Part shown: piece by piece, positions 1-22,859 of the stretch | How the letters are laid out: every line of letters starts with the position of its first letter | Position numbering within the stretch: the stretch's first letter is position 1 | From: Chromatiales bacterium | Lineage (GTDB): Bacteria; Pseudomonadota; Gammaproteobacteria; Thiohalomonadales; Thiohalomonadaceae | Assembly (NCBI GenBank): GCA_003251535.1 | Contig: QKFD01000068.1 | Coordinates: 1-39,349, forward strand | Direction of reading: 5' to 3' | DNA length: 39,349 nucleotides | The notes under the pieces: generated by a model | Database searches by the model: none | What the model saw: the letters and a program-made list of their open reading frames with translations, nothing else | Told to the model about the DNA's origin: nothing | Translations under genes and position numbers: made by a program

Positions 1-61
1 TATCTAGTCATCTTTAATTATCCCTTCCCAGATTTTTTGGTCACCCATTATCTTGGCATGA

Positions 62-2736: not shown

Positions 2737-5700
2737 ATGAGCAATAGTCACTCCTCCCACGGCTCCAAGTCGTCGTCCGATAGTGCCCAGAACAGCTCGT
2801 CTCCAGACGATTGCAGCCACTCTGAGGGGCAACACGGCTCCTCTTCCTCCGCGCCGCGCATAGAGGCGGTGAGTTGTGTGGTCAGCGGGGTACAGCCGAG
2901 TTTTCTGTTGCAGTGGCACCAGCACTCCTCGGCCCCTATTGCCATTGTGGTGACCGACGACAGCGGTCAGGCCATCCCTGGCGAGAGCAGCGATCTCAGC
3001 GCCAATGGCGGACGCTGGCAGGCCACGGTGACGCTCGATCCCAGCCTCCGCTACTGGATTCAATTGCTGCCCCAACACGGCTCTGGTTTCGCCAGTAATC
3101 GAGTGGCGCTGCTCTTTATGCCGGTGAGTGGGGTGATGGCGTTTTATGACGGCCTCTACCTCTCCCTGGCCTGGCAGACTCAGCCGGCGACGGAGCAGAC
3201 CCGCATCGAGCTACACACCTCGGCAGGGGTACAGGTGGTGGTGGCGGAGGGGAGTGCCACCCGCTTTGAGGTGGCACCGGGTCTGCGTGATTCTCCCGCC
3301 CCGTGGTGGGTCAATCTCACCCCACTGGCCAGCGCCTCCAGCGGGCCGACCAGCGATCCGCTGCCCATCGCCAGCCGTCGCCCCTCTCTGTTGCGACTCC
3401 AGGTGGTGGGCTCGGCAGGTGAGCTGCCGCTGTTGAGCTATCTACAACTGGCGCTGGAGATCGCTGTGGCAGGGGACGGCAGTGATCTCCCGGCCTTGGT
3501 AGTGGCAGTGATGGATCGAGGCACCACTATCGCCACCAGCGAGCCGTTGTCGGTCTCTTGGCAGCCCGCCGCGGAGGGGGTGCAGGGCAGCCTGACGGCG
3601 GAACTCAACGGTGGGTTTGACTGCGGCGCGGCCCTGGAGGTGGTGGTCCGGCTGAGCGGTAGCAGTGGTGCCACCGGCCCTAGTAGTAGTGCTGTGCCGC
3701 TATTGCTGCTGCCGCCGGCCGAGGTGGCGGTGGTGGTGGCAGAGCAGGGGGAGGCGCTGGAGTTGAGCGCCACCATCACCCCGGCCAGCGGCGCCCAGCC
3801 ACCCACCGGTAACCTCATCGCCATCACCGGTCCTGAGCGGCCCACCGATCCCGGCCAGGCGGCCATGGGCTGTCGCCAGCAGCTCTCCCTAGCGGGGGTG
3901 GTGGCAGGGGGCGAATATCGCCTCTATGCCGCCGCCAGTTGCGGTGTCAGTAGTAGCCAGTGGCTGGGGGCCGTGGGTCGCGTGGCCCAGGGCGATGGGC
4001 CGAATGGGAGCGGGGTGCTGCTCATCACCTCGGCCCCACAGATCGACTCCATCGAGATCGACGCCGGCCTCGCCCGCATCAGCTGGTCGGCGCTCGATGA
4101 GGCCGCAGTGCGCGGTTATCAGCTCAGTGTGAGCAGCGGTGGCCGGCCAGAGCCACGGGGTGAGTTCAGCACCACCATCGCCGAGCTGGCGGTGGCGGGC
4201 CACTCGCTCTGGTTTACTGTCGCTGGTCTGGGGCAGGGGGTCACCGGTCCCAGCTCCCGGCCTGTCCAGGCGCTGGCCAGCGCCCCCACCGGGGCCACCG
4301 CCTGCTGGGCGCCGGCCGGGGGCTGCACCCTCTCTTGGGAGGCGCCGGCGGGGGAGGGGGCGGCCGGGTATCGGTTGGAGATCCGCGCCGGTGATCAGCT
4401 GCTGCATAGCGCCACCACCAGCGACTGCCGTTACCCGCTGCCGACCGGACTGCCCGCTGGGCCGCTCAACTTCCGGGTCGCCGCCGTGGCCAGTGCGCCG
4501 GTGCGGCTGCGCGGTCCGTGGAGCAGGCCGCAGGCGATCCTCAGCAGCGCCCCAGCGGCCCTGCGGCTCCACTACGATGGCGCCACGCTGCACGCCTCCT
4601 GGGCGGCGGTACCCGCGGCGCTCGGCTATCGCTTGACCCTGCTGGCGGAGGGTGAGGCGCAGGGGGAGTCGTTGTTGGTGACCGCCCCCGCTGCCCACTT
4701 CGCGCTGCCGTTTGACCCGGCGCTGCGCTATAGCCTGGCCGTGCAGGCCCAGAGCGGGAGCGATGTGGGGCCGGCGGCGCTGGCAGAGCTGTTCCAAGCA
4801 GGCCTCTACCCGCAGTTTGCTGCTGATCAGACCCCGGCCCTCATCCCCGCTGTGGAGCCCAGCATGGCGGCCCACGTTATTAGCATCGGTCTGCCTGCGC
4901 TCTTTACTACCCCGCCGGATCCGGCCCAGCTGCCCTGCGTCCCCCCATTTACCCTGCTAGCCGCCAACGCCCCTTACGCCTATCAGCTCGATCTCGCCGG
5001 TACGGCGGAGGCCCTGCCGTGGAGTTTTGATGGTGAGCCGATGCGGGCCGATCTACTGGCCGCCTACCGCCGCTTTTTGCTGGCGCTGGAGAGTATCGGT
5101 GCCACCCCTGCGGGGCTGCGGGCGGTGCAGGCGGCCATCGCTGGTGCCATGCCGCAGAGTTTCGCCGAGACCCTGCGTTACGCCTATGGCCTGGCGGCGG
5201 CGGAGGGGTATGTCGATCTGCTGCCGGGTATGGCGCTGCGGGTGGAGTATGAGGCCTATCAGACGCTGCCGGCCGGCACCCCCGATCAGGCCCGTCTCAA
5301 CGGCTACACCACCAGCGCAGTGGCCCGCTATCCCATCGCCAGTTTTTGGGAGGCCGGGAGCCCCTATCCAGTGCTGGATCCCTTTATTGGGGCGCTGACT
5401 GGACTGGCCGGCACCACGGTCTATCCGCCGCAACAGGTGCTGCTCAAGCAGGCGGGGGCGGGCGGTCTCATCGATAGTGGCTACGCCGCGCTGCGGCAGC
5501 CGCTGTTGCGGTTGGTCTATCCCCAGGAGTTTGCCGATGCCGACTCCCCCGGCGCCCCCATCGCCCAGTACTCCGCCATGTTGCTGGCCGCCGCCAGCTT
5601 GCAGCAGCTAGAGGAGGCGACGATCGCTGCTCGCGCCGGCTTGGATGCCAGCCCCTATGCCGCGGTGTTCTACTTCCGCGGCCGTGCCACTCTAGTGCCG

Positions 5701-5994
5701 GAGATCGCCGTGAGCGTGGACGGCGCCAGCCACTGGTTACCGCTCGGCACCACTTTAGGGGATCTGCTGGCCAGCCGGGCGCGGGCACCGGCCAGCGGGG
5801 GGCTGCCGCTAGTGGGGATTGGTCTCACCCGCGGACCCGGGGCAGCGCCGGCCGGTTTGGCGGCGGAGTACTCTCTCAGTGGCACGCCCTTGCGGGTAGA
5901 TTGGGTTCCGGCTGCCCACCCGGCGCTGCTGGCACTGCCGCTGCTGGGCGGGGACTGCATCACGCTAGAGTCGGCAGTGGGGCGCCAGCCATGA
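2737..5994 (+). CDS. Fibronectin-III-like repeat protein, first gene of the giant operon
   Basis: This 1085-aa protein has no signal peptide or membrane segment. Residues 1-40 are rich in Ser, His and Asp. About seven beta-sandwich-like modules of 80-110 aa follow (roughly 43-130, 129-215, 215-325, 327-430, 432-512, 515-600, 604-685). The last three look most like fibronectin type III: each opens with Ser-Ala-Pro, has a Trp near strand B, and a G-Y-x-L strand C. The C-terminal 400 residues are a different domain that I do not recognise. Within it, residues about 986-1013 (VSVDGASHWLPLGTTLGDLL) recall ubiquitin-like beta-grasp or SLBB segments, a weak likeness. The ATG at 2737 follows GCGGGA (2724-2729). 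The stop overlaps the next start as ATGA, so the two genes are probably translationally coupled. A scaffold or binding role is inference from the repeats. Confidence 0.85.
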   Translation: MSNSHSSHGSKSSSDSAQNSSSPDDCSHSEGQHGSSSSAPRIEAVSCVVSGVQPSFLLQWHQHSSAPIAIVVTDDSGQAIPGESSDLSANGGRWQATVTLDPSLRYWIQLLPQHGSGFASNRVALLFMPVSGVMAFYDGLYLSLAWQTQPATEQTRIELHTSAGVQVVVAEGSATRFEVAPGLRDSPAPWWVNLTPLASASSGPTSDPLPIASRRPSLLRLQVVGSAGELPLLSYLQLALEIAVAGDGSDLPALVVAVMDRGTTIATSEPLSVSWQPAAEGVQGSLTAELNGGFDCGAALEVVVRLSGSSGATGPSSSAVPLLLLPPAEVAVVVAEQGEALELSATITPASGAQPPTGNLIAITGPERPTDPGQAAMGCRQQLSLAGVVAGGEYRLYAAASCGVSSSQWLGAVGRVAQGDGPNGSGVLLITSAPQIDSIEIDAGLARISWSALDEAAVRGYQLSVSSGGRPEPRGEFSTTIAELAVAGHSLWFTVAGLGQGVTGPSSRPVQALASAPTGATACWAPAGGCTLSWEAPAGEGAAGYRLEIRAGDQLLHSATTSDCRYPLPTGLPAGPLNFRVAAVASAPVRLRGPWSRPQAILSSAPAALRLHYDGATLHASWAAVPAALGYRLTLLAEGEAQGESLLVTAPAAHFALPFDPALRYSLAVQAQSGSDVGPAALAELFQAGLYPQFAADQTPALIPAVEPSMAAHVISIGLPALFTTPPDPAQLPCVPPFTLLAANAPYAYQLDLAGTAEALPWSFDGEPMRADLLAAYRRFLLALESIGATPAGLRAVQAAIAGAMPQSFAETLRYAYGLAAAEGYVDLLPGMALRVEYEAYQTLPAGTPDQARLNGYTTSAVARYPIASFWEAGSPYPVLDPFIGALTGLAGTTVYPPQQVLLKQAGAGGLIDSGYAALRQPLLRLVYPQEFADADSPGAPIAQYSAMLLAAASLQQLEEATIAARAGLDASPYAAVFYFRGRATLVPEIAVSVDGASHWLPLGTTLGDLLASRARAPASGGLPLVGIGLTRGPGAAPAGLAAEYSLSGTPLRVDWVPAAHPALLALPLLGGDCITLESAVGRQP

Positions 5995-8900
5995 GCCAGG
6001 AGCAGCCATGGTTTTGTCGTAGTGCCGCCGATTCGCGGCTCTACTGGCTGCTAGGGGGAGAGCGGCGGGTGGGTATGCTCTCTTCCAGTTCGGAGGTGCT
6101 GGCCGACGAGGTGACGCTGGATGAGAGTTTGGCCGACCTCTATGGCTGTTGGTTTTGGCTCGATGCCCCTCCCATCGATGACGCCATCTTTGCCAACACC
6201 CTGACGAAGGTGATGGGGTGCAGGTACTCCCGTGCGGTCTGGATTGCCAACGCCGCTGCCGATGGCAGTCAGTGGCGCACTCACTCGTTGGATCTCCTGG
6301 TAACTTCCACCAAATTAAGTGAGGAGACCTTCGACGCCACTGGGGTGCGGCTCACCGCTCAATACCGGGTTCCAGCGGCGGCCTCTACCGCTGCGGATGG
6401 CTATTGGCAGCTCAACCTGAGTGGGGCTGGCAGTGGCTGTACCCTCCAGGCCAACGGTAGTGCCTGGAGGGGCGACGGTGACCTCGCTATCACCTACGAT
6501 CCCAACCGCTCCGGTTGCCTGCTCTGGGAGCTGCCCCTGCCGGCACCGAAGGTGGAAGATCCACTCTCGGCGCTGGAGCAGCTAGGGGTGAGTCTGCGCT
6601 ACTGTGCGCCAGACGCGGAGAACAGCGGCGGGATCGACTGCCTACAGGTCACCCCGCTGCGCCAGCGGGGGGCGCTGCGCCTCTACTGTGCCCTCGATCC
6701 CTTGGCAATGTTCGATCCCCAGCGTACCCGTTTCTCCCTCCTGCCGCCGATTGGGCCGGCGGCGGTGCTGCCGTTTGGTACAGGCTTCATCACTGCCCGT
6801 GGCGAGGCGATAGAGCTACTGCCGGCCGCTGTCGGCAGCCAGCCGCCTGGCTTTGTCTTGGCCCGCCAACCCATCACCAGCGCCGATCCCAACGGTGAGG
6901 CGCAGAGCATCAGCTATCTCACCCCAGACGGGGCCTTTGATCTCAGCGTGGTGGCGCAGGGGGGGAGTGGACAGACCAGCCCATCTTCGTCAGCCCAAGG
7001 GCCCGCCGTGCGTGTGATGTGCGGCACCAGCGGGCTCGAATATATCGGCTTGTCGTCGCCCACAGGGACACGGCTTTGGTTTCGCGCCGGCGGCGCCGCC
7101 TACGCCGCGGCGACCGATAGCGCGCTCAGCCCAGTGGCAACCGCCCTTACCAGCCTCGGTACCACCGCCTGGATCTGGCTCACGGGTGAGTCGGCACCGG
7201 GCTACTACGCCCAGCCGGAGGAGGCGCCGTTCTACAGTGGCGGGCAGGATGGTTTTCTCGAATATCTGGAGCTGCCGGCGGTGGCGCTGAGCAGCACTCA
7301 GGCGACACCCGCCTTCCCCCTACTCGGCTATGCCGGTCTGGCCCCCGCCGCGGCCGCATTGGCGCAGGTGCTGGAGGTGAGCGCCATCGCCCCGGAACGA
7401 CGTAGGGTGATCACGGCGCTGACCGCGGAGCAGGCGGCGGGCGAGTTGCTGCCGTTGGCCCGCGACGCCTCCGTCCAGGTGGCGGTCTCGCCGTCTGGCC
7501 TGGCGTTTGGCTATCACCAACTAGATAGCGCATGGGAGTGGCTTGCCATTGGCAACAGCGCCGGTGGCAGCGTGCCGGATCTCTGCTTTACCGCGGTGAC
7601 TGGCCCCTTCCGCCAGGCGCTGCTCAGCAATCAGCTGTTCATGGTGTTGGGCGTCGCAGACAGCGTGATGGCCAGCGGATCGGTGGCCTACCGCCTGACC
7701 GAGGCCAACCTCGGGTTGGTCGCCGAGCAGGGCGCGGTGCGGGAGCCGATCTTGCTTCAGGTAGCGGTCGCGGCGGCGGTGGCGGACTACCCCATCTACC
7801 CCACCGAGGCGGCGTTCGATGCCATGCTACAGAGTGCCACTGGTAACGCCATCGAGCCGGCGGAGCAGCTGATCTTCCAGCGCTACGCGGGCCTGTTGGC
7901 GCCCACCATCGGTGATTGGTTGTTCCGCCTAGGGCCGCGCAACTGGAGTGCCGATGTCGCCAGTGACCGTTGCCCGACCCGGCTCATCTTCAAGTTCAGC
8001 AGCGGTCGCTCGTTGGCCGATCAGGTGGCCGATCCCTGCGCCTGGAGCTGGCCGGGAGCGGCGGCGGCCAACGGCGATGTGGGGGTGGTGAGTCGAGAGA
8101 TCCTTGCCACCATCCAAGCGGCGCGTGCCGCGCAGGCGGCCAACCCCAATTCACCCTATGGGCCATTCCTGACGGTAGTGGATGACCCGTACTGGAGTGG
8201 TGTGCTGGCGCTCTCCGTGGAGGTGGCCATGGATACCCTGCCGGAGTCGATCCAGCCCCTCGCCGCCGGCATCGATAGCAGCCGCTTCTACGCCCATCAC
8301 CTCGGTTTCAGCGCCACCGGTTTCACCGCCCAAGAGGGTGGGTTGTACTTCGATACCAGCGCCAGTTTTGGCCTCATCGATTACCAGAATCCCGTTGACC
8401 AATACTTCTCCAGTGATACGGCTTTTGCCTTCCGCGTGCAGCAGCTCAGTGTGGCGTTTGAGAACGGCAAACTGAGCCACTTCGCCAGCAGTGTGCAGTT
8501 GATGATCAACCGGCTGTTTGGCAGTCAGACTCAACTCTTTCCCACCCTCCATGGCAATAACCTGATCCTCGACGGCAGCTATCAGTACGAGCGTGACGAC
8601 AGCGGTATCGGGCGGGATACCTATCTCTTCGCCCTGCGTGAGCCGGGTCTATTCCAGCTTGAGCTAGGTGTGCTGGCGGCGGTGGCGGTGGAGCGGGTGC
8701 GCATGGTCACTGCGCGTGCCACCGATCCTGCCAGCGGGCAGGTGACGGTGGTGACCACCTTTGAGTTGGCCGGGCGGCTGCAATTTAGGGAACTGGAGGC
8801 GTTTGATCCCTTCTGCTGGGGGGCGTCGGTCAGCCTGGAGGAGGATACGATGGCGGCGACAGAGGGGGCGGCGGTGATCCTGGATGAGGCGACTAGCGGC

Positions 8901-9602
8901 CTCGCCTTTGCCAACTATGTGGTGACCATGAGCTTCCCGCTGGCCCAGCCCAGCGAGGTCCAATTTGGCGTGGCGGAGGGGGCTATCAGCCTCGACGCCG
9001 AGCGCCATCCGGCCCGCGCCGATGCCCTCTTCAGCCGTTTTCCGCTGCGCTTAGGGGGGCTATTGACCACACCCGATCCGCTACTGACGGGCGAGACCTC
9101 CAGCCAGACACCAGCGAGCCATGGCTTTGTCTCCATCTCCGTCCCACTGCAACAGGGTCAACTGACCCAGCCGTGGTATGGCCTGGTCTATGAGCTGGAC
9201 CTGGGGGGACTGGGGGGATTGGGGGGGGCGCTGAAGATGACCCTGCGGTTGCTGGCGGCCTGGAGCCCGGGGGGGGCCCAGAAGGGGGCGCCGGCCATCT
9301 ATTGCGGGGTTGCCCTGCCCGGAGTCGCGGGGGGGCTCGGGGCCCAGCTGCCGCTTCAGGGGATCCTCGATTTTGGCTTCCGCGCCATCCAGTTCAGTAC
9401 CTACTACGACAGCGCAGGGCGGCGGCAGTACCTACTAAGGCTGCGTGACTTCGGACTCCATGCGCTGGGTTTCTCGCTCCCGCCGGGACACAACGATGTG
9501 TTGCTATTCAGCCAGCCGGATCAGGGGACCAACACCCAGTTGGGGTGGTATGCCGCCTATGACAGCAGCCACTCCACATCCACTTCTCACCGCACCGACT
9601 GA
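5991..9602 (+). CDS. Large beta-rich protein of unknown family
   Basis: I place the start at ATG 5991, inside the ATGA overlap with the previous stop, giving 1203 aa; the open frame runs upstream to 5901 but that extension lies within the preceding gene. The sequence is dominated by alternating hydrophobic/polar stretches with many Gly, Ser and Thr, as in all-beta proteins. There is no signal peptide, membrane span or catalytic motif I can name. Characteristic segments are AAGIDSSRFYAHHLGF (about residues 759-774), a Tyr/Asp-rich run near 860-880, and LGGLGGLGGAL near 1070, encoded by homopolymeric G runs. Codon use matches the first and fourth genes of the operon, so they likely have a shared history. 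It may be a structural partner of the repeat proteins; that is inference from position only. Confidence 0.8.
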   Translation: MSQEQPWFCRSAADSRLYWLLGGERRVGMLSSSSEVLADEVTLDESLADLYGCWFWLDAPPIDDAIFANTLTKVMGCRYSRAVWIANAAADGSQWRTHSLDLLVTSTKLSEETFDATGVRLTAQYRVPAAASTAADGYWQLNLSGAGSGCTLQANGSAWRGDGDLAITYDPNRSGCLLWELPLPAPKVEDPLSALEQLGVSLRYCAPDAENSGGIDCLQVTPLRQRGALRLYCALDPLAMFDPQRTRFSLLPPIGPAAVLPFGTGFITARGEAIELLPAAVGSQPPGFVLARQPITSADPNGEAQSISYLTPDGAFDLSVVAQGGSGQTSPSSSAQGPAVRVMCGTSGLEYIGLSSPTGTRLWFRAGGAAYAAATDSALSPVATALTSLGTTAWIWLTGESAPGYYAQPEEAPFYSGGQDGFLEYLELPAVALSSTQATPAFPLLGYAGLAPAAAALAQVLEVSAIAPERRRVITALTAEQAAGELLPLARDASVQVAVSPSGLAFGYHQLDSAWEWLAIGNSAGGSVPDLCFTAVTGPFRQALLSNQLFMVLGVADSVMASGSVAYRLTEANLGLVAEQGAVREPILLQVAVAAAVADYPIYPTEAAFDAMLQSATGNAIEPAEQLIFQRYAGLLAPTIGDWLFRLGPRNWSADVASDRCPTRLIFKFSSGRSLADQVADPCAWSWPGAAAANGDVGVVSREILATIQAARAAQAANPNSPYGPFLTVVDDPYWSGVLALSVEVAMDTLPESIQPLAAGIDSSRFYAHHLGFSATGFTAQEGGLYFDTSASFGLIDYQNPVDQYFSSDTAFAFRVQQLSVAFENGKLSHFASSVQLMINRLFGSQTQLFPTLHGNNLILDGSYQYERDDSGIGRDTYLFALREPGLFQLELGVLAAVAVERVRMVTARATDPASGQVTVVTTFELAGRLQFRELEAFDPFCWGASVSLEEDTMAATEGAAVILDEATSGLAFANYVVTMSFPLAQPSEVQFGVAEGAISLDAERHPARADALFSRFPLRLGGLLTTPDPLLTGETSSQTPASHGFVSISVPLQQGQLTQPWYGLVYELDLGGLGGLGGALKMTLRLLAAWSPGGAQKGAPAIYCGVALPGVAGGLGAQLPLQGILDFGFRAIQFSTYYDSAGRRQYLLRLRDFGLHALGFSLPPGHNDVLLFSQPDQGTNTQLGWYAAYDSSHSTSTSHRTD
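9203..9276 (+). other. Cluster of long G runs inside a coding region (G-quadruplex candidate)
   Basis: G runs of 6 (9203-9208), 6 (9212-9217), 8 (9221-9228) and 8 (9269-9276) lie in the beta-rich protein gene, the first three separated by only 3 nt. They encode Leu-Gly-Gly repeats. The arrangement satisfies the usual G-quadruplex pattern on the coding strand, and runs of 8 G are prone to slippage. Whether either happens is unknown. Confidence 0.5.
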
Positions 9603-9616
9603 GGGGTCTGCCCGCT

Positions 9617-10984: not shown

Positions 10985-11022
10985 GCTGCCTCCTCACACC
11001 GAACCGTTAGGGATCTCGCACC

Positions 11023-14000: not shown

Positions 14001-17000
14001 CGATCTCGGCTTTCCCCAGCAGCGCGACTTCTCCCGCAGCTTCGGCCTGCGCTACGGCAAATTCACCGGCAAGGGGGGGATCTACTTTGGCCGCCTGAGC
14101 GGTGCCACCTCCAGCCAGGTGCCGGCCCTCGCCAACGGCCAGTTTGCGCCGGTACTGGAGTTGGGGGTTGGGGTGACCGCGGGGATGCGCTGGGGTCTGG
14201 TGCAGGGGGCACTGAGCGCGGAGTGCGAGCTGTTGGTGGAGGTGATCTTCGAGGGGGTGTTGGCCTGGTTCCACCCCGATGACCAGAGTAGTGCCAAGGC
14301 GATCTACTACTCCGCCCAAGGTAACGCCGCCCTGCTGGGTAAGGTCTACGGCAAACTGGCCTTCAAATTCATCACCGCCGAGGTGAGCTTTGAGGCGCGG
14401 GCGGCGGCCAGCCTCGCCCTGGCCGCCCATCGTGCCACCACCCTCCGCCTTGAGCTGGATGTGGCGGCCCACTGCTTAGTGGAGGTGGGCTGGTTCGAGA
14501 TCTCCTACTCCTTTGCTGCCCGCCTCTCCCTCTCGCAGGTCATCGGCCACGATACCACCCCGCCCTGGGTGCTGGCCGCCGACCAGTCGGGTCAGCAACA
14601 GGCGCGGCGGGGGGCACGGGGCCACACGGCGCTGGCGCGCCAGGCGCCGTTTGGGATCTTGCCGCAGACCAATGCCTCCCGCGCCACGGCCCTCGCCCCG
14701 CGTCGGCGGCCGGAGTTGGGGGTACTGTTCACGCGCCATCTGGGGCGGGCGCGACGGGCCGGTGCAGTAGCGCTCCCCATCACCCGACTGGCGTCCGAGA
14801 TCGCTGATCCCTGCGGCCAGGGGCACTATCAGCTCTCATTCGATCCGTCGGTGCAGGTATTTCCCGCCGGCAGCCCGGCCATCCTCGATGTGCGCCTGGT
14901 ACCTGCCTTCACCATGGCCGAGCCCACGGTGGTCTGGCCTGGTGAGCGGGCGCCCGTGGGGGATGAGGCGACCGACTATCAGGTGGTGATTACGCTTGTC
15001 ATCGATGGCCCTTCGCCGGTGGGGGCAGAGAGCCTGGCAGAGCATCGCAGCGCCCCCTTCAACACCACGGCGCGGGCGATGCGGGGCGCCGAGACCCCCT
15101 TCGCCCGGCTCACTGAGGCGCTGTTCCGCCGCGCCATCGCCAGCCTGGGCCTTGATCCCCTTAGCGCCACCATCACAGCCGGCGATCTCGCAGAGCTGAC
15201 CGCTCAGCTCGCCTGCCCGCAGACCTTCGCCAACGGCTTCTCCTTTGACCAGCTGAGTGCCTTTTTCAACAACAACCTCCAGCTCCATCTCTCCACCACC
15301 CCCAGCGGCGAGGAGCCACCCACCACCATGGGGGGAGTCGCCTTCCCCATGCTGCCCCTGCTCAAGTGGACCTGTGCGCAGATACCGGAGTTGGCCACGC
15401 GCGACTTTGCCAAATACCAGCTGGTGGATGAGGAGTACGCCGCGGCTATCGAGACCTATTTCCGCCAGCTCTCGCCCCAGCCACGGCTGGAGTCAACGAC
15501 GGGGACGGGGATTGCTAGCGGCGAGTCGCTCGCCTCGGTGGTGTTCCGCGAATACCTGCTGTTGTTGACCCGCCTGGCGGTGGAGGCGGCGGAGCAGCTA
15601 CTGGCCCGCTGCCCGGTGGCGCTGGATACGGCGATCACCCTAACCCAGATCGCGCAGCGCTTCCCCACGCTGAGCCTCCCCTATGCGGTGCAGAGCGGCG
15701 ACACCGTGGAGCAGGTGGCTGCCAGCTGCGGCGCCAGCAGCGCAGAGCTGCTGGCGCTCAACCCCAACCTGGAGGGGCTGCTGGAGGCGGCCGAACCGGG
15801 GAGTCAGCTGAGTCTGGTGCTGGGGGTGACGCCGGAGTCCATCGCCGCCGGTAACCCGGAGCGACTGCTGAGTGCCAATTTAGAACTTCAGGTTCCCGCC
15901 TTGGCCACCGAGGTACGGGCCGGCGAGAGTGCCGCCCAGCTCTGCCAGTGGGTGGGGGCAGAGGTGGATCACTGGCTCAGTCAACCGGTGGCCCTGGATG
16001 CCCCCGCCATCACCCGCGCCGGGGCGGGCTTGGCGCTGCCGGCGGGGCCGCTGGTGGTACTGCCTGAACTTACCCTGCGCCAGATTGCCGCCCTGCTCTA
16101 TGTCCGCCTGCGCGCCGGCCAGGGCGTGGCAACCCACACCGCGGGGGCCGACTGGTATGGCGAGGCGATAGTGCAGCTCAACGACAAGAACATCGCCGCT
16201 GATGGGACGCTGCCGTCGCAGATTATGCTGCCTTACCAATACGACAACGTGGTCGCATTGGCCATCCCTTGGCAGCGTTTGGTGGGTGATAGCCTGCCGC
16301 TGCTGGCCGCCACTACCGCGTTGTGGCAGAACCTCGGCATCGATCCTGGGTTTGAGTTGTGGTGGCAGCAGTTGGCACAGCTCAACCCCGACCATGTAGT
16401 GGGTGAAGCGGTGCAGCTACCGGCCACCACCACCGCCCTACTGCCGGGCGAGACACTGCGGGCGCTGGCGGCGCGGCTACTGTGGGTGACGGATCCCTAC
16501 GCCACCTCGGCGGAGCCGACTGGCGACTTCCGCAGCCTGGTGGCCAACGCCGATCTGCTGGCGCCGCTGGCGCCGGTGGTGGTGACCAACTGCACCTTGG
16601 CCACCCAGGGCCAAGAGTCACTGCGCCAGTTCGCCGCCCGCTACGACCTGACACTAGAGGCGGTGGGGCGGCTGGCGGCGGATCAAGCGGGGCTATTCGA
16701 TCCAACCCCGGGGGCGCTGCTGGTGCCTGCGGTGCTGGCCATCGACCTGGATCGGCTAATCCCGCTCCTCACCGCCGATCTACCGCTCCGCGACCTGGCC
16801 GGACAGCTCTCCCGCTTCATGCTCCATGGCCAGCGCCTGCCAACCCCAGACGGCGCCTCCATGCAGGGGCTCTATCAGCTGATTGGTCAGCAGGTGGAGG
16901 CACCAGTGTTCACCTCGTTCCTGCCACTGCTCAGCTTCCTCTTCCAGCTCAACCAGCCCACCCCTTGGATCGAGCTGGTGGGGAGCGCCACCGTTCCCGC

Positions 17001-18555
17001 TGGGGCGGCCGAGCAGGCGGCGCTCCAGGCGGCATGGCCTGAGCTGGCGGCGCGCAACCCCGCGCTGGCCACCGGCGGGTTGCGCCAGGGGATGGTGGTG
17101 GAGACGGCCAGAGTAGATGGGTTGCTCCTGGAGATCACAGCAGCGCAGGCGGCGGCGGGTAACCCCGCCCCATATCTCGCCCCTGTGCTGCCGGCGCTGC
17201 CCAGCGCGCTGCCGCTGTGGGAGGCGGTGGCGCTGCTACGTTACGCCCTGCCGCAGCGACTGACTTGGCAGCTGGCCAACTGGCCGGCGCTGCCGATCCT
17301 GGGCGGGCGCACCAGTGCCGTTGGGATGCCGTCGCTCTGGCCCTTCCCGGCCGATCTCCAGGCCCGCGCTGACGCCACCAATAACGGTCCCTTCCAGCTC
17401 TACGCCAGTGATCCCCAGTTGGATGAGGCGCCACGCGCCATCGAGCGCTTCACCTGGGCCACCCGCGTGGTGATCCGCTTGAGCCGCATCCCTGGCCGCC
17501 CCCACGCCGCGAGTGTCAACGGCAGCGATGCCCAGGGGCGTCAGCGACTGCTGGCGTTGCGCCACTATCTGGCGGCCCACCCGGAGGAGGGGGCGACACT
17601 GCTGCTCGGCTTCGACTACTCGTCGGCGGCCGGGCTCGGTGCCGGGCTCATCTCCCCCAGTGTGGCGGCGGAGTCGGTCTATGTGGTGCGCACCAATCTC
17701 ACCACCGATACCCGCGCTGATACCCCCGCTACGCCGGCCTGGCGCTCGACCGGCGCAGGGGGGGCCGCCTCAGGCCCCTACTTTGCCCCGCTCAGCGATC
17801 CCCGTGGCTTTCTCAAGCTGCTGTGGGAGGCGAGCGTGGTGGGGGGCGATGGCTACTGGCTCGGCTATAGCGATCAAGCGGGGCAGGGGCTCGATGAGGC
17901 GATCTGGCGCCAGGATGGCTACGCCACTATCTCGCTGTTGGTGGTGCTCGACAGCGCTGCCGCCGCCACCCCCAATCGACAGCTGCTACCGCTGCACAAC
18001 GCCGCCTTCATCGCAGATCCCATCGACGCCACCTCTACCCTCCTCAGCGTCGCCGCCGCCGCTGGGCAGGAGCAGGTACGGCGGGCCAGTGTGGCCCAGG
18101 GCCAGATCGGCTTCACCTTGGGGGTTGAGCTACCCGCGCAGAGCGGTGATGACCCCCAGCTGCGGGCGCGCCAGCTATTCCAGCTCACCAGCTACCAGTT
18201 GGCAGAGAGTGACTGTTTCAACGCCAGCCACACGGGCCGGCCCGTGGCACCCCAGCTGCATGGCGGGGCGGCGCTCGATCTCCAGCAACGGAATGGAGTG
18301 GGGGCGGTCGCGGGGCGTTCACAGCAGATCTCCCAGGTGATCCCCATCCACCGCTTTGCCAAACAGAACCCACTGCCACTGGTCCCCGGGCTGCCACCGG
18401 CGGAGGCCAACCCCTACGCCGGGATCGCCTCCGCAGGGACAGAGGCCCCCCCCGTGGTCAGGGTGCTGCTGGGTTTCCACGACGTCTTTGGCAACAGTAC
18501 GGCGCAGACGCCGCCTGTGGCCACCACTGCCAGCACTGAAGGAGCCGGTCCATGA
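11023..18555 (+). CDS. 2510-aa giant protein: beta-rich N-half, LysM-like C-half
   Basis: ATG 11023 follows AGGGAT (11009-11014), 38 nt after the hydrolase gene. Residues 1 to about 1180 are beta-rich and repetitive, including VDIYTNGDFKVDLGFPQQRD near 984-1003. They read like a long beta-solenoid or beta-barrel assembly and faintly recall DUF6603-type giant proteins, a recollection I cannot verify. An Arg/Gln-rich linker spans about 1190-1250. A clear LysM module follows near 1551-1595 (YAVQSGDTVEQVAASCGASS, then LLALNPNL), with degenerate copies near 1630 (VRAGESAAQLCQWVG), 1690, 1808 (LLPGETLRALAARLLW) and 1870 (GQESLRQFAARYDL). The last 500 residues are again beta-rich and end in VLLGFHDVFGNS. 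No signal peptide or membrane span is visible. LysM domains usually bind N-acetylglucosamine polymers such as peptidoglycan; binding is not established for these diverged copies. The stop overlaps the next start as ATGA. Confidence 0.85.
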   Translation: MSVAMLNLEFEAAAQQGEIGAAISPLMGKLVATLGVTSLLVGGARASRPANSALLSGSTLWSNSRWRLTLIGTVNSSGQDQLALTLVAENGQQRHLLSSLVPDLPASWRPSTNAAGTLSRGASVLAELGVLHAQIEATAVGDDTETAPPPRLSGSLPLLDSPLEPYIGLLGASQLTLTGQIDPRLEAPAEAKVDLSCAAVNAASRWPSPLAEAELGLVLTTAEVDPFPFFSGSGAGTVSSVLLRASLLAEGAPERILVATAPLLRGGQGLDFVGTLTPPLTLVDGLSGIQSLLPSLSSATLALPSGVSALNAFGLSHLRIGFKTGTNGLPQVISHTGFTISSTAPWDLPIPFLRIDQVTASWLANWIGSRREWRGFLFGAMQFGEEGGAGTAAPVLDEEGHSIALEVSVALPELDVKAVTTRPFLLNLPSAMAVFFPGQQPEVDSSLLVEHISMGANLSRQQYGATLRTRGGWSLPIGDVTFALDEVTFEVNVSQAAIWGGLAGTAGVYVGGEQQLLLAVGAYYPGGGSWQFQGGLAQGEIDLPTLIYAFLGQQAPAWLDDSSLALTRLWAEYSTGLGHPYAVEAALAARWDPQLLGIKLSLALAARIARRPRVTTAGRRAGRDLLRLNALASNAPPLYRTLLQEQSSAPTTAMIYEGSLQGSFELNRLTIGVDLSFLSAEMTALYRLQLGEFSLEARSAWSGEGEQRHQLLTVAMQGGTLGELIASLATLANPNTNYRLPEPWRALDEIPLGRFTLLLDPSLQTVSMEYTVQLELGFMTLTRVGVRYDRSRGEPQVKIELAGQFLGKHYDSATGLQPLSWDALNDAPPLVPGGGRGLVDVRYLGLGQHVALSAGDTTRSVAEVIAQMRAQLRPTDSSQRNPLDQPSGSLLRFDERSQWLIGVELVALECATLQLVLADPDLYGVRIALAGSQAGALAGLAFELSYRKLSSGIGLFQGRLQVPTRFRQLDLGAIALTLGTIGVDIYTNGDFKVDLGFPQQRDFSRSFGLRYGKFTGKGGIYFGRLSGATSSQVPALANGQFAPVLELGVGVTAGMRWGLVQGALSAECELLVEVIFEGVLAWFHPDDQSSAKAIYYSAQGNAALLGKVYGKLAFKFITAEVSFEARAAASLALAAHRATTLRLELDVAAHCLVEVGWFEISYSFAARLSLSQVIGHDTTPPWVLAADQSGQQQARRGARGHTALARQAPFGILPQTNASRATALAPRRRPELGVLFTRHLGRARRAGAVALPITRLASEIADPCGQGHYQLSFDPSVQVFPAGSPAILDVRLVPAFTMAEPTVVWPGERAPVGDEATDYQVVITLVIDGPSPVGAESLAEHRSAPFNTTARAMRGAETPFARLTEALFRRAIASLGLDPLSATITAGDLAELTAQLACPQTFANGFSFDQLSAFFNNNLQLHLSTTPSGEEPPTTMGGVAFPMLPLLKWTCAQIPELATRDFAKYQLVDEEYAAAIETYFRQLSPQPRLESTTGTGIASGESLASVVFREYLLLLTRLAVEAAEQLLARCPVALDTAITLTQIAQRFPTLSLPYAVQSGDTVEQVAASCGASSAELLALNPNLEGLLEAAEPGSQLSLVLGVTPESIAAGNPERLLSANLELQVPALATEVRAGESAAQLCQWVGAEVDHWLSQPVALDAPAITRAGAGLALPAGPLVVLPELTLRQIAALLYVRLRAGQGVATHTAGADWYGEAIVQLNDKNIAADGTLPSQIMLPYQYDNVVALAIPWQRLVGDSLPLLAATTALWQNLGIDPGFELWWQQLAQLNPDHVVGEAVQLPATTTALLPGETLRALAARLLWVTDPYATSAEPTGDFRSLVANADLLAPLAPVVVTNCTLATQGQESLRQFAARYDLTLEAVGRLAADQAGLFDPTPGALLVPAVLAIDLDRLIPLLTADLPLRDLAGQLSRFMLHGQRLPTPDGASMQGLYQLIGQQVEAPVFTSFLPLLSFLFQLNQPTPWIELVGSATVPAGAAEQAALQAAWPELAARNPALATGGLRQGMVVETARVDGLLLEITAAQAAAGNPAPYLAPVLPALPSALPLWEAVALLRYALPQRLTWQLANWPALPILGGRTSAVGMPSLWPFPADLQARADATNNGPFQLYASDPQLDEAPRAIERFTWATRVVIRLSRIPGRPHAASVNGSDAQGRQRLLALRHYLAAHPEEGATLLLGFDYSSAAGLGAGLISPSVAAESVYVVRTNLTTDTRADTPATPAWRSTGAGGAASGPYFAPLSDPRGFLKLLWEASVVGGDGYWLGYSDQAGQGLDEAIWRQDGYATISLLVVLDSAAAATPNRQLLPLHNAAFIADPIDATSTLLSVAAAAGQEQVRRASVAQGQIGFTLGVELPAQSGDDPQLRARQLFQLTSYQLAESDCFNASHTGRPVAPQLHGGAALDLQQRNGVGAVAGRSQQISQVIPIHRFAKQNPLPLVPGLPPAEANPYAGIASAGTEAPPVVRVLLGFHDVFGNSTAQTPPVATTASTEGAGP

Positions 18556-21500
18556 GTTCCGCCACCCAGGGCCAGATCGATATCACGGTCGGCTACATCG
18601 ATCCGGTGATTGGGGTCACCAGCTGGCCAGCCACCACCACCGCCTGGCTGGTGCTGCCGGCCCTGCCGGGCGCCGCCGGTGCCCAGCTGGCGGTGACTCT
18701 CAGCCTCCAGCCGAGCGCCTTCATCGCCACCGCCACTGCCGCTGGTGGGGCGGCGACGACGCTGGCGGCGGAGTTGGCAGGCCGCTATGCGACCATCTGG
18801 TACCAGCTGATGCAGCCCGATATGCAGGCGACCCTGGCCACGACCCTCCAGCAGTCGGCCACGGCGGCCCCCCAGGAGTTGCCGCTGGCGCTGGCGCCGC
18901 TGCGCTACCACGCCGCCGCCTGTTACGCCTTTGCCGTGAGTGCCGCCCGCTTCACCCCGGCGCTGGTGGCGCTGCCCCCCACGGCCACCCTCGTCGATGC
19001 GCTGGAGCACTACGGCTGCGACTGGCAGGCGCTCGGTCTGGCGGCCCAGGAGCGCCCCCTAGGGGAGCTGATGGTGCTGCCGCAAGGCGGTGTCGATATC
19101 CCCCAGTTCGCCCTCTTCCAGGCCGGTGATACGGTGGCCACGGCGCTGCCAGGGGTGGCGGATCCAGTGGCGGTGCTGAGCGCGAAAGCCAACCTCGCTC
19201 TACCGCTGCGGGTGGGGGTAGAGCTGGTGGTGCCGGCCGTGCAGCGCGCGGTCACGCAGCCAGAGATGCCACTGCGGCTGTTGGCGGCGGCCTGGGGGTT
19301 GCGGTTGGAGAGCCTGGTGGCGGCCAATGCCGCCGGCACCGCCCTACTGCGGCCCGGTTTCATCTTCTCCGCCCTCGGGGTGGAGGTGGAGATCCCCCCC
19401 TTGGGGGAGCCGGGCTGCGATGCCAGCCTCAATGAGGTGGCGGCGCTGTTCCGTGCCAATGGCGTGCCGTTCGATGCGGTGATGGCGGCGGGCGCCAACG
19501 CCGACCAGCCCGGCATGTTTCGCCCCGAGGCCCAACTATGGGTGGACCGCCGGCTCACCCAGGAGGGTTGGAGCCTGGCGGAGAGTGGCACCGGTGTCAC
19601 CGCCTCGGTATTGGCGCAACTCAACAGCACTACCCCAGATCTCTTTCCCGCCGGCACTGCGCTGCTGTTGGGGGTCACCCGCACAGATGGCTTGGCGGAG
19701 GTCCCGCTGGCCGAGGTGGCCCGCACCTACGCCATTGAGCCGGGCGAACTGCTGCGCTACAACAGCGCCCTCCGCCCGCGGGCGTTGCCGGTGGCGGGCC
19801 TGGCGGCGTGGCCGGCGCAGCCCGCCGAGCTGCGCCTCCCCTACCGTATCCGGGCCGGCGAGAGCATGACCGAGATCGCCAACCGTCTCTTGCCCGCCGG
19901 CCCCGACCCGGCGCTGGCGCTGGTGATGGCCAACCGTGCCATGCCTGGCAGCGTGGTGGGCGGGCGCACCATTAGCGTGGCCGGCCAGTCCCTGACCACA
20001 CAGAGCGGCGACAGCTTTGATGTGGTGCTGGCGCGCGCCAATCCACCGCTGAGCATCGAGCAGTTCGCCAGCGCCATCGCCGACGATGGGAATATTTTGG
20101 CCCCCGCTGCTTTGCTGCTCTGCCCACCGGCCCAGCTGCCGCAGCAGGCGCAGGGGGTGACGCTGCTGGAGCTGGTCGAGCGCTACGGTCTCCAACCCGG
20201 CAATCTGCTGAGCGCCAACCTCGCCACCCCCAACCTGCTCTGCCCAGGGGTGGAGGTGACGGTGGTGAGTGGTGGCGAGCGCTACACCCAGGAGACCGCC
20301 GCCGCCGATAGCCTCAACGCCCTCCTGCGCCGCTTTGTCGTCAGTGGGGTGGAGGCGTCGGTGAACGAACTGGTGCGTGACAACGCCAAGGTGCCGCTCT
20401 TCGCCCCGGAGGCATTGCTGCTACTGCCGCCGGCCGAGACCCAACTCAACGTTGCCATCGGGGTCGATGGCTGGCAGTGGCCGGCGGTGATATTCCCGCT
20501 CCAGTGCTGGTTGACCCTGGCCCGTGCCGCGCAGCTGGTGGATCCTGGGCTCCGGGGTAGTGAGGCCGACCCCTCGCCGGTGGTGGCCGCCCGTAGCCTG
20601 TTGACCGCCGACGGCATGACCGATCCGACCGATTCAGCAGGCAGCGCTCAGGGGCTTGCCCTCTTTGCCGCCACCCTCGAACAGGCCATCGCCGGTCTCA
20701 AACTGGCCACCGGAGGGCCGTCATCGGCCAACGGCGAGCTGTGGGGGGTCTCCTTCCTGGCGTCTGGCGGGATCGCCCAGGTGACCATCGCCCCCGACTC
20801 GGTACTGCCTGGGGTGACGGGGGCGCAGCCCCTGAGCTTTGCCCTGCGCCCCCTCTCCACCTCCCTGGAGGCGCGCTACGCCGTCTCCGTCGCCCCCTTC
20901 GATATGGCCACTGGCCAGTGGGGCGAGGGCCAGCTCTGGAATTTTCAGGGGATCGATCTGGAGGTGTGGGCACGCAGCTGGTTGGCCGGGCTCGATCTCA
21001 TCGCCACCGCCCCCTATGCGGAGCCGGCCTATCGGGTGGCACCGGCGGCGCTGGCGCAGCTGCTGGCGGCCAAAGAGCAGCTGGCCGAGGCCATCGCCGA
21101 TGGCCTCTCCGCCATCTTGCAACCCCAGGCCCAGGGGGCGGGGGCCATCGGCGGCGGCGCCTGGCAGGTGGCCCGCGCAGCGCTACTCCAGCGCCTGCTG
21201 CGCCAACTTGTGCCGGCCTACGATACCAGCGCGCTGCTGCAATTCAGCGCCCAGATAGAGGCGCCGGACGCCTGTGCCAACGCCCGTCTGGTGGGGAGCG
21301 GGCAGCTGCTCGATCCGCTGACCGGGGAGGTGGCGGACGATCAGCTGGTACGGCTTAGCAGTGCCAAGACCCCATTAAAGACCGCCGCCGCGGCGCCGGT
21401 CTCCTTTAGCCTCGATCTCTCCCACCTCTGCGCGGAGCGGGCGGTGGCGCTACGACCGAGTTATGTGGTCAACCAGCTGGAGTTTGCTATCACCCTTGAG

Positions 21501-22859
21501 GAGGATGAGTATGAGTCCTCCCACTGGCTGAGCTTTGCCCGGCCGTTTGATCTCTATCCGCCTGCCACCTTCTCCGCCGATCTGGGGCGGCCGGTAGTGC
21601 CGCTACCGCTGCGCGCCTACCCGGACCCGCCGGTGCTGGTGGGCCATCGGGCACGGGTGGCAACGGCCCCCGCCAGTGTGGCGGAGGCGCTGCTCTGGGG
21701 CTACGAGTTTGCCTACACCCACGCGGGTGCGGCGCAGGATGAGATCCGCATCGAACTGGAGTTTAATCGTCACCATGCGCCGCAGCTGCGCACCCAGATC
21801 GCCGATCGACTCTTCCCGGCCTTGGCCCAATATGCCTCCGCCAGTGATCCCCTCTGGCAGATCCTGGAGCGGTTGCAGGCGCCGGAGGCGAGTGCCGACG
21901 ATAGCGTACTGGTGGCCGCCCTCGGCAGCTATGCCAGCTTGGCGACGGAGGTGGCCGAGGGGTGGCAGGAGTGGTGGGCAGCGGGTCTCGCTGCCGCGGC
22001 CGGGGAGGGGATAGTTCCGGCCAGCCGGCAGATACCGGTGGAGGGGACGGCGCACCACCAATTCCACCACTATCTCGCCCGACTGCACAGCCACACCGCG
22101 GAGGGGGTGGCCATCTGCCAGAGTCTGACCCTGCAACGCCTGGGGACGGGTGGCGGGCTCGCCTGGCCGGAGATCGTCGCCGTGCGCGAGGATGGGACGG
22201 AGGTGGCGCTCAGCGCCGGTAGTATCGAGGGCCAGCGCCGCAACTACGACTTCCCCAGCACCGGACCGCTGCTGCCTGCCGCCAGCCGCATCACCCTGCG
22301 CTACACCTTCGGCGGTCTGTCCATCGCCGACTACCAGAATGCCAGTGCCGGAGTCGCGGTGATCCGCAACGCCCGCCTGCTCGGCCCGGAGGGACCGGAG
22401 AGCGCCCCCGACTTCATCTACCGCACCCCGCAACTCAGCTTCCCCGAGCCGCTGGTGCCCCTCATCAACATCGATGAGCGGATCGACATCGGGCCCTGGA
22501 GCAGTGATCCCCAGGAGAATCCGCTGAACGGCGTGTTCACCGCCCTGTTTGGCAGTGACACCACCGATCGGCAGATCGCCTTCGCCATCCGCTACGGCTA
22601 CCGCCTGGTGGCGGCGGGGCCCGACTCCATTGAAACCCTGCTACCGGTGCTGCTGCATCCGCGCTACACCTACGTCGCCAGTGGCAGCGACGCCACCGTG
22701 CCCGCCATCATCACCGCCCTCGACCACTGGCAGAGCGAGACACAACCCAGCAGCAACGGCGCCCTCTGGGGCTTCGGTATCGATCTCTACTCCAACACCG
22801 ACCCCAGCTTGGAGCGGCCACTGCTGCGGCTGAAACGGCTGGTCTCACCTTTGAGCTAA
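18552..22859 (+). CDS. 1435-aa LysM-like array protein, last gene of the giant operon
   Basis: ATG 18552 lies in an ATGA overlap with the giant gene and follows GAAGGAG (18538-18544), a strong internal ribosome binding site. The first 150 residues (DITVGYIDPVIGVTSW) are beta-rich. From about 190 to 640 come perhaps eight degenerate LysM-like units. The clearest is LPYRIRAGESMTEIANRLL at about 428-446; others include PLAEVARTYAIEPGELLRYN and LLELVERYGLQPGNLLSAN. The C-terminal 800 residues form a beta-rich region containing LSFARPFDLYPP and VVPLPLRAYPDPPVL, with no named family. There is no signal peptide or membrane segment. Since the LysM-like array runs on from the preceding protein, the two may be halves of one ancestral chain. 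The operon seems to end here, as 620 bp without genes follow. Confidence 0.85.
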   Translation: MSSATQGQIDITVGYIDPVIGVTSWPATTTAWLVLPALPGAAGAQLAVTLSLQPSAFIATATAAGGAATTLAAELAGRYATIWYQLMQPDMQATLATTLQQSATAAPQELPLALAPLRYHAAACYAFAVSAARFTPALVALPPTATLVDALEHYGCDWQALGLAAQERPLGELMVLPQGGVDIPQFALFQAGDTVATALPGVADPVAVLSAKANLALPLRVGVELVVPAVQRAVTQPEMPLRLLAAAWGLRLESLVAANAAGTALLRPGFIFSALGVEVEIPPLGEPGCDASLNEVAALFRANGVPFDAVMAAGANADQPGMFRPEAQLWVDRRLTQEGWSLAESGTGVTASVLAQLNSTTPDLFPAGTALLLGVTRTDGLAEVPLAEVARTYAIEPGELLRYNSALRPRALPVAGLAAWPAQPAELRLPYRIRAGESMTEIANRLLPAGPDPALALVMANRAMPGSVVGGRTISVAGQSLTTQSGDSFDVVLARANPPLSIEQFASAIADDGNILAPAALLLCPPAQLPQQAQGVTLLELVERYGLQPGNLLSANLATPNLLCPGVEVTVVSGGERYTQETAAADSLNALLRRFVVSGVEASVNELVRDNAKVPLFAPEALLLLPPAETQLNVAIGVDGWQWPAVIFPLQCWLTLARAAQLVDPGLRGSEADPSPVVAARSLLTADGMTDPTDSAGSAQGLALFAATLEQAIAGLKLATGGPSSANGELWGVSFLASGGIAQVTIAPDSVLPGVTGAQPLSFALRPLSTSLEARYAVSVAPFDMATGQWGEGQLWNFQGIDLEVWARSWLAGLDLIATAPYAEPAYRVAPAALAQLLAAKEQLAEAIADGLSAILQPQAQGAGAIGGGAWQVARAALLQRLLRQLVPAYDTSALLQFSAQIEAPDACANARLVGSGQLLDPLTGEVADDQLVRLSSAKTPLKTAAAAPVSFSLDLSHLCAERAVALRPSYVVNQLEFAITLEEDEYESSHWLSFARPFDLYPPATFSADLGRPVVPLPLRAYPDPPVLVGHRARVATAPASVAEALLWGYEFAYTHAGAAQDEIRIELEFNRHHAPQLRTQIADRLFPALAQYASASDPLWQILERLQAPEASADDSVLVAALGSYASLATEVAEGWQEWWAAGLAAAAGEGIVPASRQIPVEGTAHHQFHHYLARLHSHTAEGVAICQSLTLQRLGTGGGLAWPEIVAVREDGTEVALSAGSIEGQRRNYDFPSTGPLLPAASRITLRYTFGGLSIADYQNASAGVAVIRNARLLGPEGPESAPDFIYRTPQLSFPEPLVPLINIDERIDIGPWSSDPQENPLNGVFTALFGSDTTDRQIAFAIRYGYRLVAAGPDSIETLLPVLLHPRYTYVASGSDATVPAIITALDHWQSETQPSSNGALWGFGIDLYSNTDPSLERPLLRLKRLVSPLS

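What the first reader, a model, noticed from the sequence alone, without database searches (positions are those of the whole stretch)
2737..22859. Five-gene operon of giant FnIII-like, beta-rich and LysM-like proteins around a ComEC-type hydrolase
Seen: 20 kb of same-strand genes with junctions ATGA, 14 bp, 38 bp and ATGA, encoding 1085, 1203, 455, 2510 and 1435 aa, none with a signal peptide. Known: FnIII and LysM modules bind proteins or glycans, and ComEC-type MBL domains are hydrolases. Inferred: the products form one assembly with a single enzyme. I know no named system of this make-up. Alternatives are a secreted or lysis-released antagonism complex, a cytoplasmic defence complex, or a surface scaffold.
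Basis: partly seen in the sequence, partly recalled or inferred. Interest (0 to 1): 0.85.

Follow-up and report, generated by a model that had tools for sequence, protein, structure and literature searches.

The report
Giant-protein cassette with swappable nuclease slot
A rare set of bacterial genes makes giant proteins around one interchangeable enzyme of nuclease type; the same set turns up in four distant bacterial phyla, I found no description of it, and it looks like a carrier whose enzyme cargo gets exchanged.

Summary
The five-gene operon is real and as described. It belongs to a cassette found at 20 loci in 19 genomes or records of four phyla. Family A (gene 2) and family B (gene 4; gene 5 is often fused to it) are in 20 of 20 (B was mostly the bait). 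Full order C-A-enzyme-B: 10 of 20. The gene beside or between A and B is an enzyme slot: ComEC-like metallo-beta-lactamase (MBL) in 8 of 20, DNase-I-like EEP in 6, neither in 6. MBL loci are one clade in both A and B trees, so enzymes of unrelated folds but like chemistry took the same place. In one comparison of near relatives (Tistrella vs G1070) most windows are 81-100% identical, but the MBL is 25-47%, and the A tail (63%) and first 500 residues of B (52-64%) drop with it: best explained by joint exchange of enzyme and docking surfaces. A and gene 5 match no known family; B holds LysM. Best reading: a carrier of an exchangeable phosphodiesterase, probably for antagonism. Assembly, activity, release and target are unproven; a defence role remains open.

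The parts
2737..5994 (+). Gene 1, component C: variable FnIII-like N-terminal part plus a conserved ~345-residue C-terminal domain
   Evidence: C domain in 11 of 20 loci
4933..5967 (+). Conserved C domain (residues 733-1077), proposed docking domain
   Evidence: profile C2, E 1.2e-142; weakest true member 6e-100, best noise 0.7
5991..9602 (+). Gene 2, component A (1203 aa), core scaffold family without known relatives
   Evidence: in 20 of 20 loci; no Pfam or NCBIfam match; one chance-level PDB row (E 0.19)
9617..10984 (+). Gene 3, component E: ComEC-like metallo-beta-lactamase in the enzyme slot
9893..9910 (+). Metal-binding motif HQDNDH (residues 93-98; HxDxDH as in ComEC)
   Evidence: invariant in A1; ComEC H598/D600/D602/H603 named as Mn2+ ligands (PMC12455585, passages)
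10814..10984 (+). MBL tail, disordered-looking by eye, ending in a basic ARRVR motif of a kind seen in 6 of 10 MBLs
   Evidence: docking tag is inference
11023..18555 (+). Gene 4, component B (2510 aa), core scaffold with LysM
11023..12672 (+). B residues 1 to about 550: proposed enzyme-docking part, by homology with the block that differs together with E between Tistrella and G1070
   Evidence: inference
13156..14589 (+). B core domain (residues 712-1189), the part of B found in all 20 loci
   Evidence: A6 profile
15682..15774 (+). LysM in gene 4 (residues 1554-1584)
   Evidence: Pfam PF01476, 21.4 bits, cut-off 20.9
18552..22859 (+). Gene 5 (1435 aa): a separate gene here and in 7 other loci, fused to B in 11 loci

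Best explanation
The cassette encodes a large carrier complex. A and B (with gene 5) are the scaffold, C is an exchangeable binding arm (FnIII in some loci, laminin-G in Nostoc), LysM-type modules sit in B, and the enzyme E is docked between the C-terminal tail of A and the N-terminal ~550 residues of B. The enzyme is a phosphodiesterase, most likely a DNA nuclease: EEP type in several branches, ComEC-like MBL in the clade of this window. The complex probably leaves the cell by lysis or an unknown route and brings the enzyme to a target cell or surface, i.e. it works like a polymorphic toxin whose cargo is a separate, exchanged gene. Shown: recurrence and order of the genes, different enzyme folds in one position, joint divergence of E with its neighbours' ends in one close pair. 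Inferred: physical assembly, docking, exchange by recombination, nuclease activity, release and antagonism.
For: Gene order and junctions. E lies between A and B in 13 of 20 loci (8 MBL, 5 EEP). MBL loci are one clade in the A and B trees (100/100 and 100/99; 0 of 500 shuffles as clustered), with EEP loci in several places of the rest. Catalytic residues: EEP 6 of 6, MBL 7 of 8 aligned (10 MBL genes known, the other two read intact). ComEC's MBL domain cuts DNA (PMC12455585, passages); Nostoc's EEP is weakly like MnuA nuclease (E 1.8e-5). Tistrella vs G1070: blastn blocks of 90-92% end at 19884 and resume at 21482, none over the MBL; per 100 residues HINT 87-100, C 89-96, A 81-100 but 63 in its last 70, E 25-47 (against G1070's second MBL), B 52-64 up to 500, 81 to 600, then 91-100, gene 5 90-100; inside the block G1070 is about as close to Magnetospirillum as to Tistrella, outside it is not. 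Two tandem MBLs in G1199 and G1070. Adhesion-type modules: fn3, laminin G, LysM. HINT proteins upstream in 5 of 20; the G182 EEP has a signal-peptide-like start. A profile finds A only at the cassettes in 11 genomes (12 matches).
Against: The exchange block rests on one pair of types (G1199 and G1070 are close to each other, so this is one event), its A-side edge is gradual (88, 85, 81, 63), and B's N-terminus varies more than the rest in other pairs too, so fast local divergence is not excluded. No immunity-like gene is conserved: in the 20 stretches held, the recurrent families are the cassette's own plus flanking and mobile genes, odd for an antibacterial toxin. No core protein has a clear signal peptide, though several B starts are hydrophobic; no secretion apparatus recurs in the flanks held. 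One MBL (G1376) is catalytically dead. Six loci have neither MBL nor EEP. The AlphaFold models are poor (mean pLDDT 53 and 46), so docking rests on sequence alone. Activity is untested; EEP and MBL folds also act on other phosphoesters.
Confidence: 0.42

Rival explanations
1. A cytoplasmic defence complex against phages or plasmids: A/B sense invasion, and E, a nuclease, is let loose inside the cell.
For: The window's MBL matches MBLs of defence systems (LmuA E 7.7e-10, RTasMBL 1.3e-9; 6A-MBL 1.6e-6, Avs1a 1.9e-5). MBL nucleases were acquired repeatedly by Hachiman, AVAST, Lamassu and DRT, and occur with caspases in canu loci (PMC12799240, passages). Rare, often on plasmids (8 of 72,556 plasmids); type III-B CRISPR genes a few kb from the A. 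lipoferum locus, with insertion sequences between; caspase-like genes near two loci; a NAL1-like protease in the Paenibacillus locus; no clear signal peptides, no immunity gene.
Against: PADLOC holds defence families only, so its matches cannot tell defence from other use; in NCBIfam ComEC is about as good for the window (5.6e-6) and clearly best for the Embleya MBL (9.6e-9 against 5.6e-4 for 6A-MBL). No NTPase or other known sensor domain in genes 1, 2, 4, 5; no protease fused or paired with the MBL. FnIII, laminin G and LysM modules, and one EEP with a signal-peptide-like start (G182), speak for the outside of the cell.
Confidence: 0.25
2. A surface or extracellular nutrient or biofilm machine: the complex holds a nuclease or phosphatase at the cell wall to digest extracellular DNA or phosphoesters.
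For: LysM and FnIII/laminin-G modules; enzyme types of phosphoester chemistry; no immunity gene.
Against: Strong divergence of the enzyme with its docking ends between near relatives is not expected of a feeding enzyme; no clear signal peptides on A, B or MBL; rare (3 of 398 Pseudomonadota genomes, own included).
Confidence: 0.15
3. B is a lipid-carrying or membrane-spanning beta structure and the enzyme acts on lipids; the cassette moves or modifies membrane lipids.
For: One of the two longer stretches of the B model with pLDDT about 70-84 (residues about 940-1150; the other is 1-90) is an antiparallel beta meander; Foldseek lists LptD first, ApoB at rank 17 and MTP at rank 21; VIA-align lists porins (Z 10.6-12.9, rmsd 4-10 A in the 50 rows shown).
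Against: Model confidence is low (mean pLDDT 53, pTM 0.32) and TM-scores to the hits are about 0.1 on the model's length; Gram-positive members without clear signal peptides cannot use it as an outer-membrane barrel.
Confidence: 0.1

Closest known systems
ComEC/Rec2 MBL domain (DNA uptake)
   Same: HxDxDH, GD and HHG motifs; best PDB matches (E 0.009 and 0.01) and NCBIfam TIGR00361
   Different: No membrane or competence domain; small separate gene with a long tail
MBL nucleases of AVAST, Hachiman, Lamassu, DRT and canu defence loci
   Same: Profile matches to the same kind of MBL, far below the families' own cut-offs
   Different: No trypsin-like or caspase activator gene beside the MBL, no NTPase or helicase partner
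Polymorphic toxin systems (Rhs, CDI, TcdB/TcaC types)
   Same: Constant scaffold with changing enzymatic cargo; HINT proteins beside some loci (HINT in such systems: PMC3482391, passages)
   Different: Cargo is a separate gene, no RHS or filamentous repeats in the Pfam scans, no conserved immunity gene
Tc toxin complexes (features recalled)
   Same: Several giant proteins around an enzyme
   Different: No Tc or RHS Pfam match in genes 1-5; order and parts differ

Membership tests
Tc toxin complex | TcA/TcB/TcC proteins with RHS repeats | tested here: not met
   Pfam scans of genes 1-5 and of B relatives show no Tc or RHS family
Polymorphic toxin system | exchangeable enzymatic domain on a constant carrier | tested here: met
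   in the form of a separate gene: MBL or EEP in one position, divergence block in one close pair
Polymorphic toxin system | cognate immunity gene next to the toxin | tested here: not met
   no conserved small neighbour in the 20 stretches held; unrelated immunity genes in single loci are not excluded
Polymorphic toxin system | export signal or dedicated secretion system | tested here: inconclusive
   crude screen only; no recurrent secretion genes in the flanks held
MBL-nuclease defence systems (AVAST type 1, Hachiman, Lamassu, DRT) | MBL nuclease of the ComEC-like kind | tested here: inconclusive
   profile matches but far below cut-off (27.5 of 220 bits for 6A-MBL), and ComEC matches as well or better
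MBL-nuclease defence systems (AVAST type 1, Hachiman, Lamassu, DRT) | trypsin-like protease fused to an NTPase or other defence enzyme | tested here: not met
   no such domain in genes 1, 2, 4, 5
ComEC | membrane channel with MBL domain | tested here: not met
   455-aa protein; PDB match covers residues 207-317 only
EEP (DNase-I-like) superfamily, for the slot enzyme of other loci | conserved E, H, D-N and D-H residues (which ones are catalytic: recalled) | tested here: met
   6 of 6 sequences; Pfam Exo_endo_phos, below its cut-off, in 2 of the 4 EEPs scanned at E up to 0.05

The most novel reading that the evidence does not exclude
A categorically new class of giant, non-RHS carrier complex: A and B form a scaffold that takes its enzyme as a separate subunit through a swappable docking unit (A tail plus B N-terminus), so that cargo genes are exchanged between strains and even across folds (EEP and MBL) while the carrier stays; spread, often on plasmids, over at least four phyla.
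Probability: 0.4. Interest if true: 0.9.

Novelty: categorically new. Interest (0 to 1): 0.78.

Why it matters
If the carrier reading is right, this is a delivery or effector platform built from protein families that no library used here names, with a cargo slot filled by enzymes of unrelated folds. The block that differs between close relatives points to where cargo docks, which makes the mechanism testable at once and makes the slot a guide to further unknown effectors. If instead it is a defence system, it would be one without any recognised sensor domain.

Tried and rejected
Structure prediction of B 1-1197 and A 1-1195 with five-row alignments gave low confidence; I drew no fold assignment from them. 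Foldseek on the PDB and BFVD, and VIA-align, gave only generic beta-sheet matches. Profile searches of the PDB with A1, A5, A6 and A7 gave nothing significant (one chance-level row for A7, E 0.19), nor did the Nostoc EEP alone. DUF6603, recalled as a possible relative, has no Pfam match here and no paper. A possible C-like lipoprotein in G421 (535 aa) seemed alike by eye but the C profile does not find it, so I do not count it. The VWA gene 23479-24960 and the lipoprotein-like gene 417-1238 were considered as parts and dropped: no relative of either at E 1e-4 in the stretches held of the other 19 loci. Profile comparison of A, B core, C and gene 5 shows no kinship. Names such as YkuD-like, M15-like, aegerolysin-like and SKICH-like for small neighbours came to me by eye and memory; Pfam did not support those that I scanned, so I do not use them. 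Paper searches gave listings in which no title or abstract start describes the cassette: (open-licence PMC papers only, no preprints).

Bias and exceptions. Most loci were found with B as bait, so B in 20 of 20 is by construction. Independent counts: A in 20 of 20; A-like hits in plasmids (6 and 7 records) all lie in the 8 B-bearing records (the eighth, A. lipoferum, has an A found only by profile); A in 3 of 239 Pseudomonadota genomes, of which own and G182 have B, while G140 has a truncated A with no B in the 20 kb around it; whether G140 was in the B sample the output does not show. In one search the root is a midpoint for drawing only; the EEP label needs 4 changes but starred branches force only 1, and 37 (A tree) and 61 (B tree) of 500 shuffles are as low, so that EEP is the older enzyme is inference.

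After the one-time check I mended: full gene order (10 of 20 loci, three phyla, not all), the pLDDT statement, the defence-MBL row (now inconclusive), several counts, and lowered the main confidence from 0.45 to 0.42 because the exchange block is a single event with one gradual edge.
Full report
What was checked. The window lies at contig C37:1-39349 of a 4.63-Mb draft genome in 130 contigs. G+C is 58-71% through the operon and about 49% in the first 2 kb. No Rfam family at gathering score and no tRNA.

Relatives. In the same genome contig C30 carries a second, divergent copy with all five genes, the fifth cut by the contig end; identities to the window are 48, 57, 41 and 54% for genes 1-4. 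Trees place the window copy outside a group of the C30, Magnetospirillum and Tistrella-type copies, with 87/98 support for A and 71/47 for B, so the two copies look like separate acquisitions rather than a fresh duplication. In 56 genomes searched with gene 3 (own included) only the own genome has strong matches; two others have weak ones (E 1.3e-4 and 4.3e-4). The five-gene order recurs on Tistrella mobilis plasmid pTM1 and in Magnetospirillum fulvum. tblastn of gene 4 against 72,556 plasmids gave 8 records: Tistrella, Embleya, Nostoc, Mycetohabitans, two Azospirillum, Paenibacillus, Lysinibacillus. Phages: no match in 50,697 records with three B queries. One IMG/VR contig. Whole-genome searches with the B core profile: 3 of 398 Pseudomonadota (own, G182, G421), 1 of 296 in the phylum of the Streptomyces seed (the seed itself), 3 of 298 in the genus of G182 (G182 included), 4 of 337 in the class of Magnetospirillum (Magnetospirillum and Tistrella included), 2 of 295 in the genus of the Streptomyces seed (seed included). 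That makes 20 loci in 19 genomes or records: Pseudomonadota, Actinomycetota, Cyanobacteriota, Bacillota, and one unassigned viral-collection contig.

Composition of the cassette (profiles built from the loci themselves). A (gene 2): 20 of 20, in G421 fused to the B core. B core (gene 4): 20 of 20, mostly by choice of bait. Gene-5 part: 19 of 20 (not G421), a separate gene in 8 loci and fused to B in 11. C domain (end of gene 1): 11 of 20, with a clean gap to noise. Enzyme slot: MBL 8 of 20 (window, C30, Tistrella, Magnetospirillum, Embleya, G1199 and G1070 with two each, G1376); EEP 6 of 20 (Nostoc, Streptomyces, A. lipoferum, G182, G765 by a weak match of E 1e-5 and its motifs, G808 read from the frame). 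In 13 loci the enzyme gene lies between A and B; in G182 the EEP lies upstream of A. The full order C-A-enzyme-B holds in 10 loci (the 8 MBL loci, Nostoc, Streptomyces), i.e. in three phyla; both Bacillota loci have A-B without MBL or EEP. Of the six loci with neither, Paenibacillus has a NAL1-like protease gene upstream of A, Mycetohabitans and Azospirillum B510 have small related proteins (SK) there, and Lysinibacillus, the IMG/VR contig and G421 have no recognised enzyme. HINT proteins precede 5 loci. In an all-against-all comparison of the stretches held, nothing else recurs that looks like an immunity gene. With the A profile, 11 cassette-bearing genomes give 12 matches, all at cassettes; with the MBL profile the same genomes give cassette matches plus one weak match elsewhere in G765 (E 6e-6).

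Scaffold families. Genes 2, 4 and 5 have no Pfam family except LysM in gene 4; PHROGs, NCBIfam, PADLOC and PDB sequence searches add only weak or partial matches. LysM is found in 6 of 12 B proteins or halves scanned, with E 2.4e-32 in Streptomyces and 1.9e-16 in Embleya. Gene 1 relatives carry fn3 (Embleya) or laminin-G (Nostoc) before the C domain; those of Streptomyces and G182 are short and carry neither by size.

Enzyme. The MBL holds HQDNDH, PGD and PHHG, invariant in the first three copies aligned; the corresponding residues of ComEC bind Mn2+ and its MBL domain cuts DNA (PMC12455585, passages). In the eight-sequence alignment the motifs are intact in 7 and lost in G1376. EEP residues are intact in 6 of 6. 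Both folds include DNA nucleases; neither protein was tested.

Replacement and exchange. In both the A and the B tree the eight MBL loci are one supported clade that spans Actinomycetota and Pseudomonadota, while EEP loci sit in several places of the remainder. The simplest history is a change between EEP and MBL at the base of that clade; that EEP is the older state is inferred, since the root is unknown. On a short time scale, the Tistrella and G1070 cassettes match in two blastn blocks of 90-92% identity that stop at Tistrella locus position 19884 and resume at 21482, i.e. on both sides of the MBL gene. In protein windows of 100 residues HINT is 87-100, C 89-96, A 81-100 except its last 70 residues at 63, E 25-47, B 52-64 up to residue 500, 81 to 600, then 91-100, gene 5 90-100. 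In the low block G1070 is about as close to Magnetospirillum as to Tistrella; outside it is far closer to Tistrella. So A tail, enzyme and B N-terminus differ as one block. Recombination is the simplest cause; against it stand the gradual edge in A (88, 85, 81, 63), the generally more variable B N-terminus in other pairs, and the fact that G1199 and G1070 are close to each other, so this is one event. Between G1199 and G1070 the first MBL (71%) has diverged more than A, B or the second MBL (94, 91, 87%). MBL tails end in a basic RRV-type motif in 6 of 10 genes, a possible docking tag.

Interpretation. The block, the occupation of one position by two unrelated phosphoesterase folds, and the adhesion-type modules speak for a carrier with exchangeable cargo. 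The missing immunity gene and the lack of clear signal peptides speak against a plain secreted antibacterial toxin; likeness of the MBL to defence nucleases (PMC12799240, passages) keeps the defence reading open, although ComEC matches it as well. I give 0.42, 0.25, 0.15 and 0.10 to carrier for antagonism, defence, surface or nutrient nuclease, and lipid machine.

Known or not. Seven paper searches in the open PMC library gave no title or abstract start that describes the cassette; preprints and subscription papers were not searchable.

Noticed in passing
window 1-2600: Low-G+C stretch (about 49% in the first 2 kb) before the operon, with a 1.5-kb gap between genes and a strong stem-loop followed by T at 2304-2328 (5 terminator-like sites found, 2.7 expected).
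   Followed up: partly
window 417-1238: Lipoprotein-like protein (by eye) with matches to PHROG 16082 and 4186 of unknown function.
   Followed up: no
window 23479-24960: VWA protein (Pfam VWA_2) with a signal-like start and similar repeats after the VWA domain, by eye; no relative beside the other cassettes.
   Followed up: partly
L054 13499-14533 (G1376): MBL in the slot with lost metal ligands and no HHG: apparently a dead enzyme kept in place.
   Followed up: partly
L050 10958-13734 (G1199) and the matching place in L053 (G1070): Two tandem, divergent MBL genes in one slot; the first differs more between the two genomes (71 against 87% identity).
   Followed up: partly
L061 (G140) 9420-12014, minus strand: Truncated A gene without B in the 20 kb held.
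   Followed up: partly
L016 4769-15968 (Mycetohabitans): B read as two genes, with a TGA inside the core match: possibly broken, or a sequencing error.
   Followed up: no
L015 30132-32276 and L048 3795-4895: Related caspase-like genes lie near two cassettes, outside them.
   Followed up: no
L026 9326-10202 (G182): Two small related proteins (132 and 136 aa) directly before C; no Pfam match.
   Followed up: no
L020 24355-30801 (A. lipoferum plasmid): Type III-B CRISPR genes a few kb from the cassette, with insertion sequences between.
   Followed up: no
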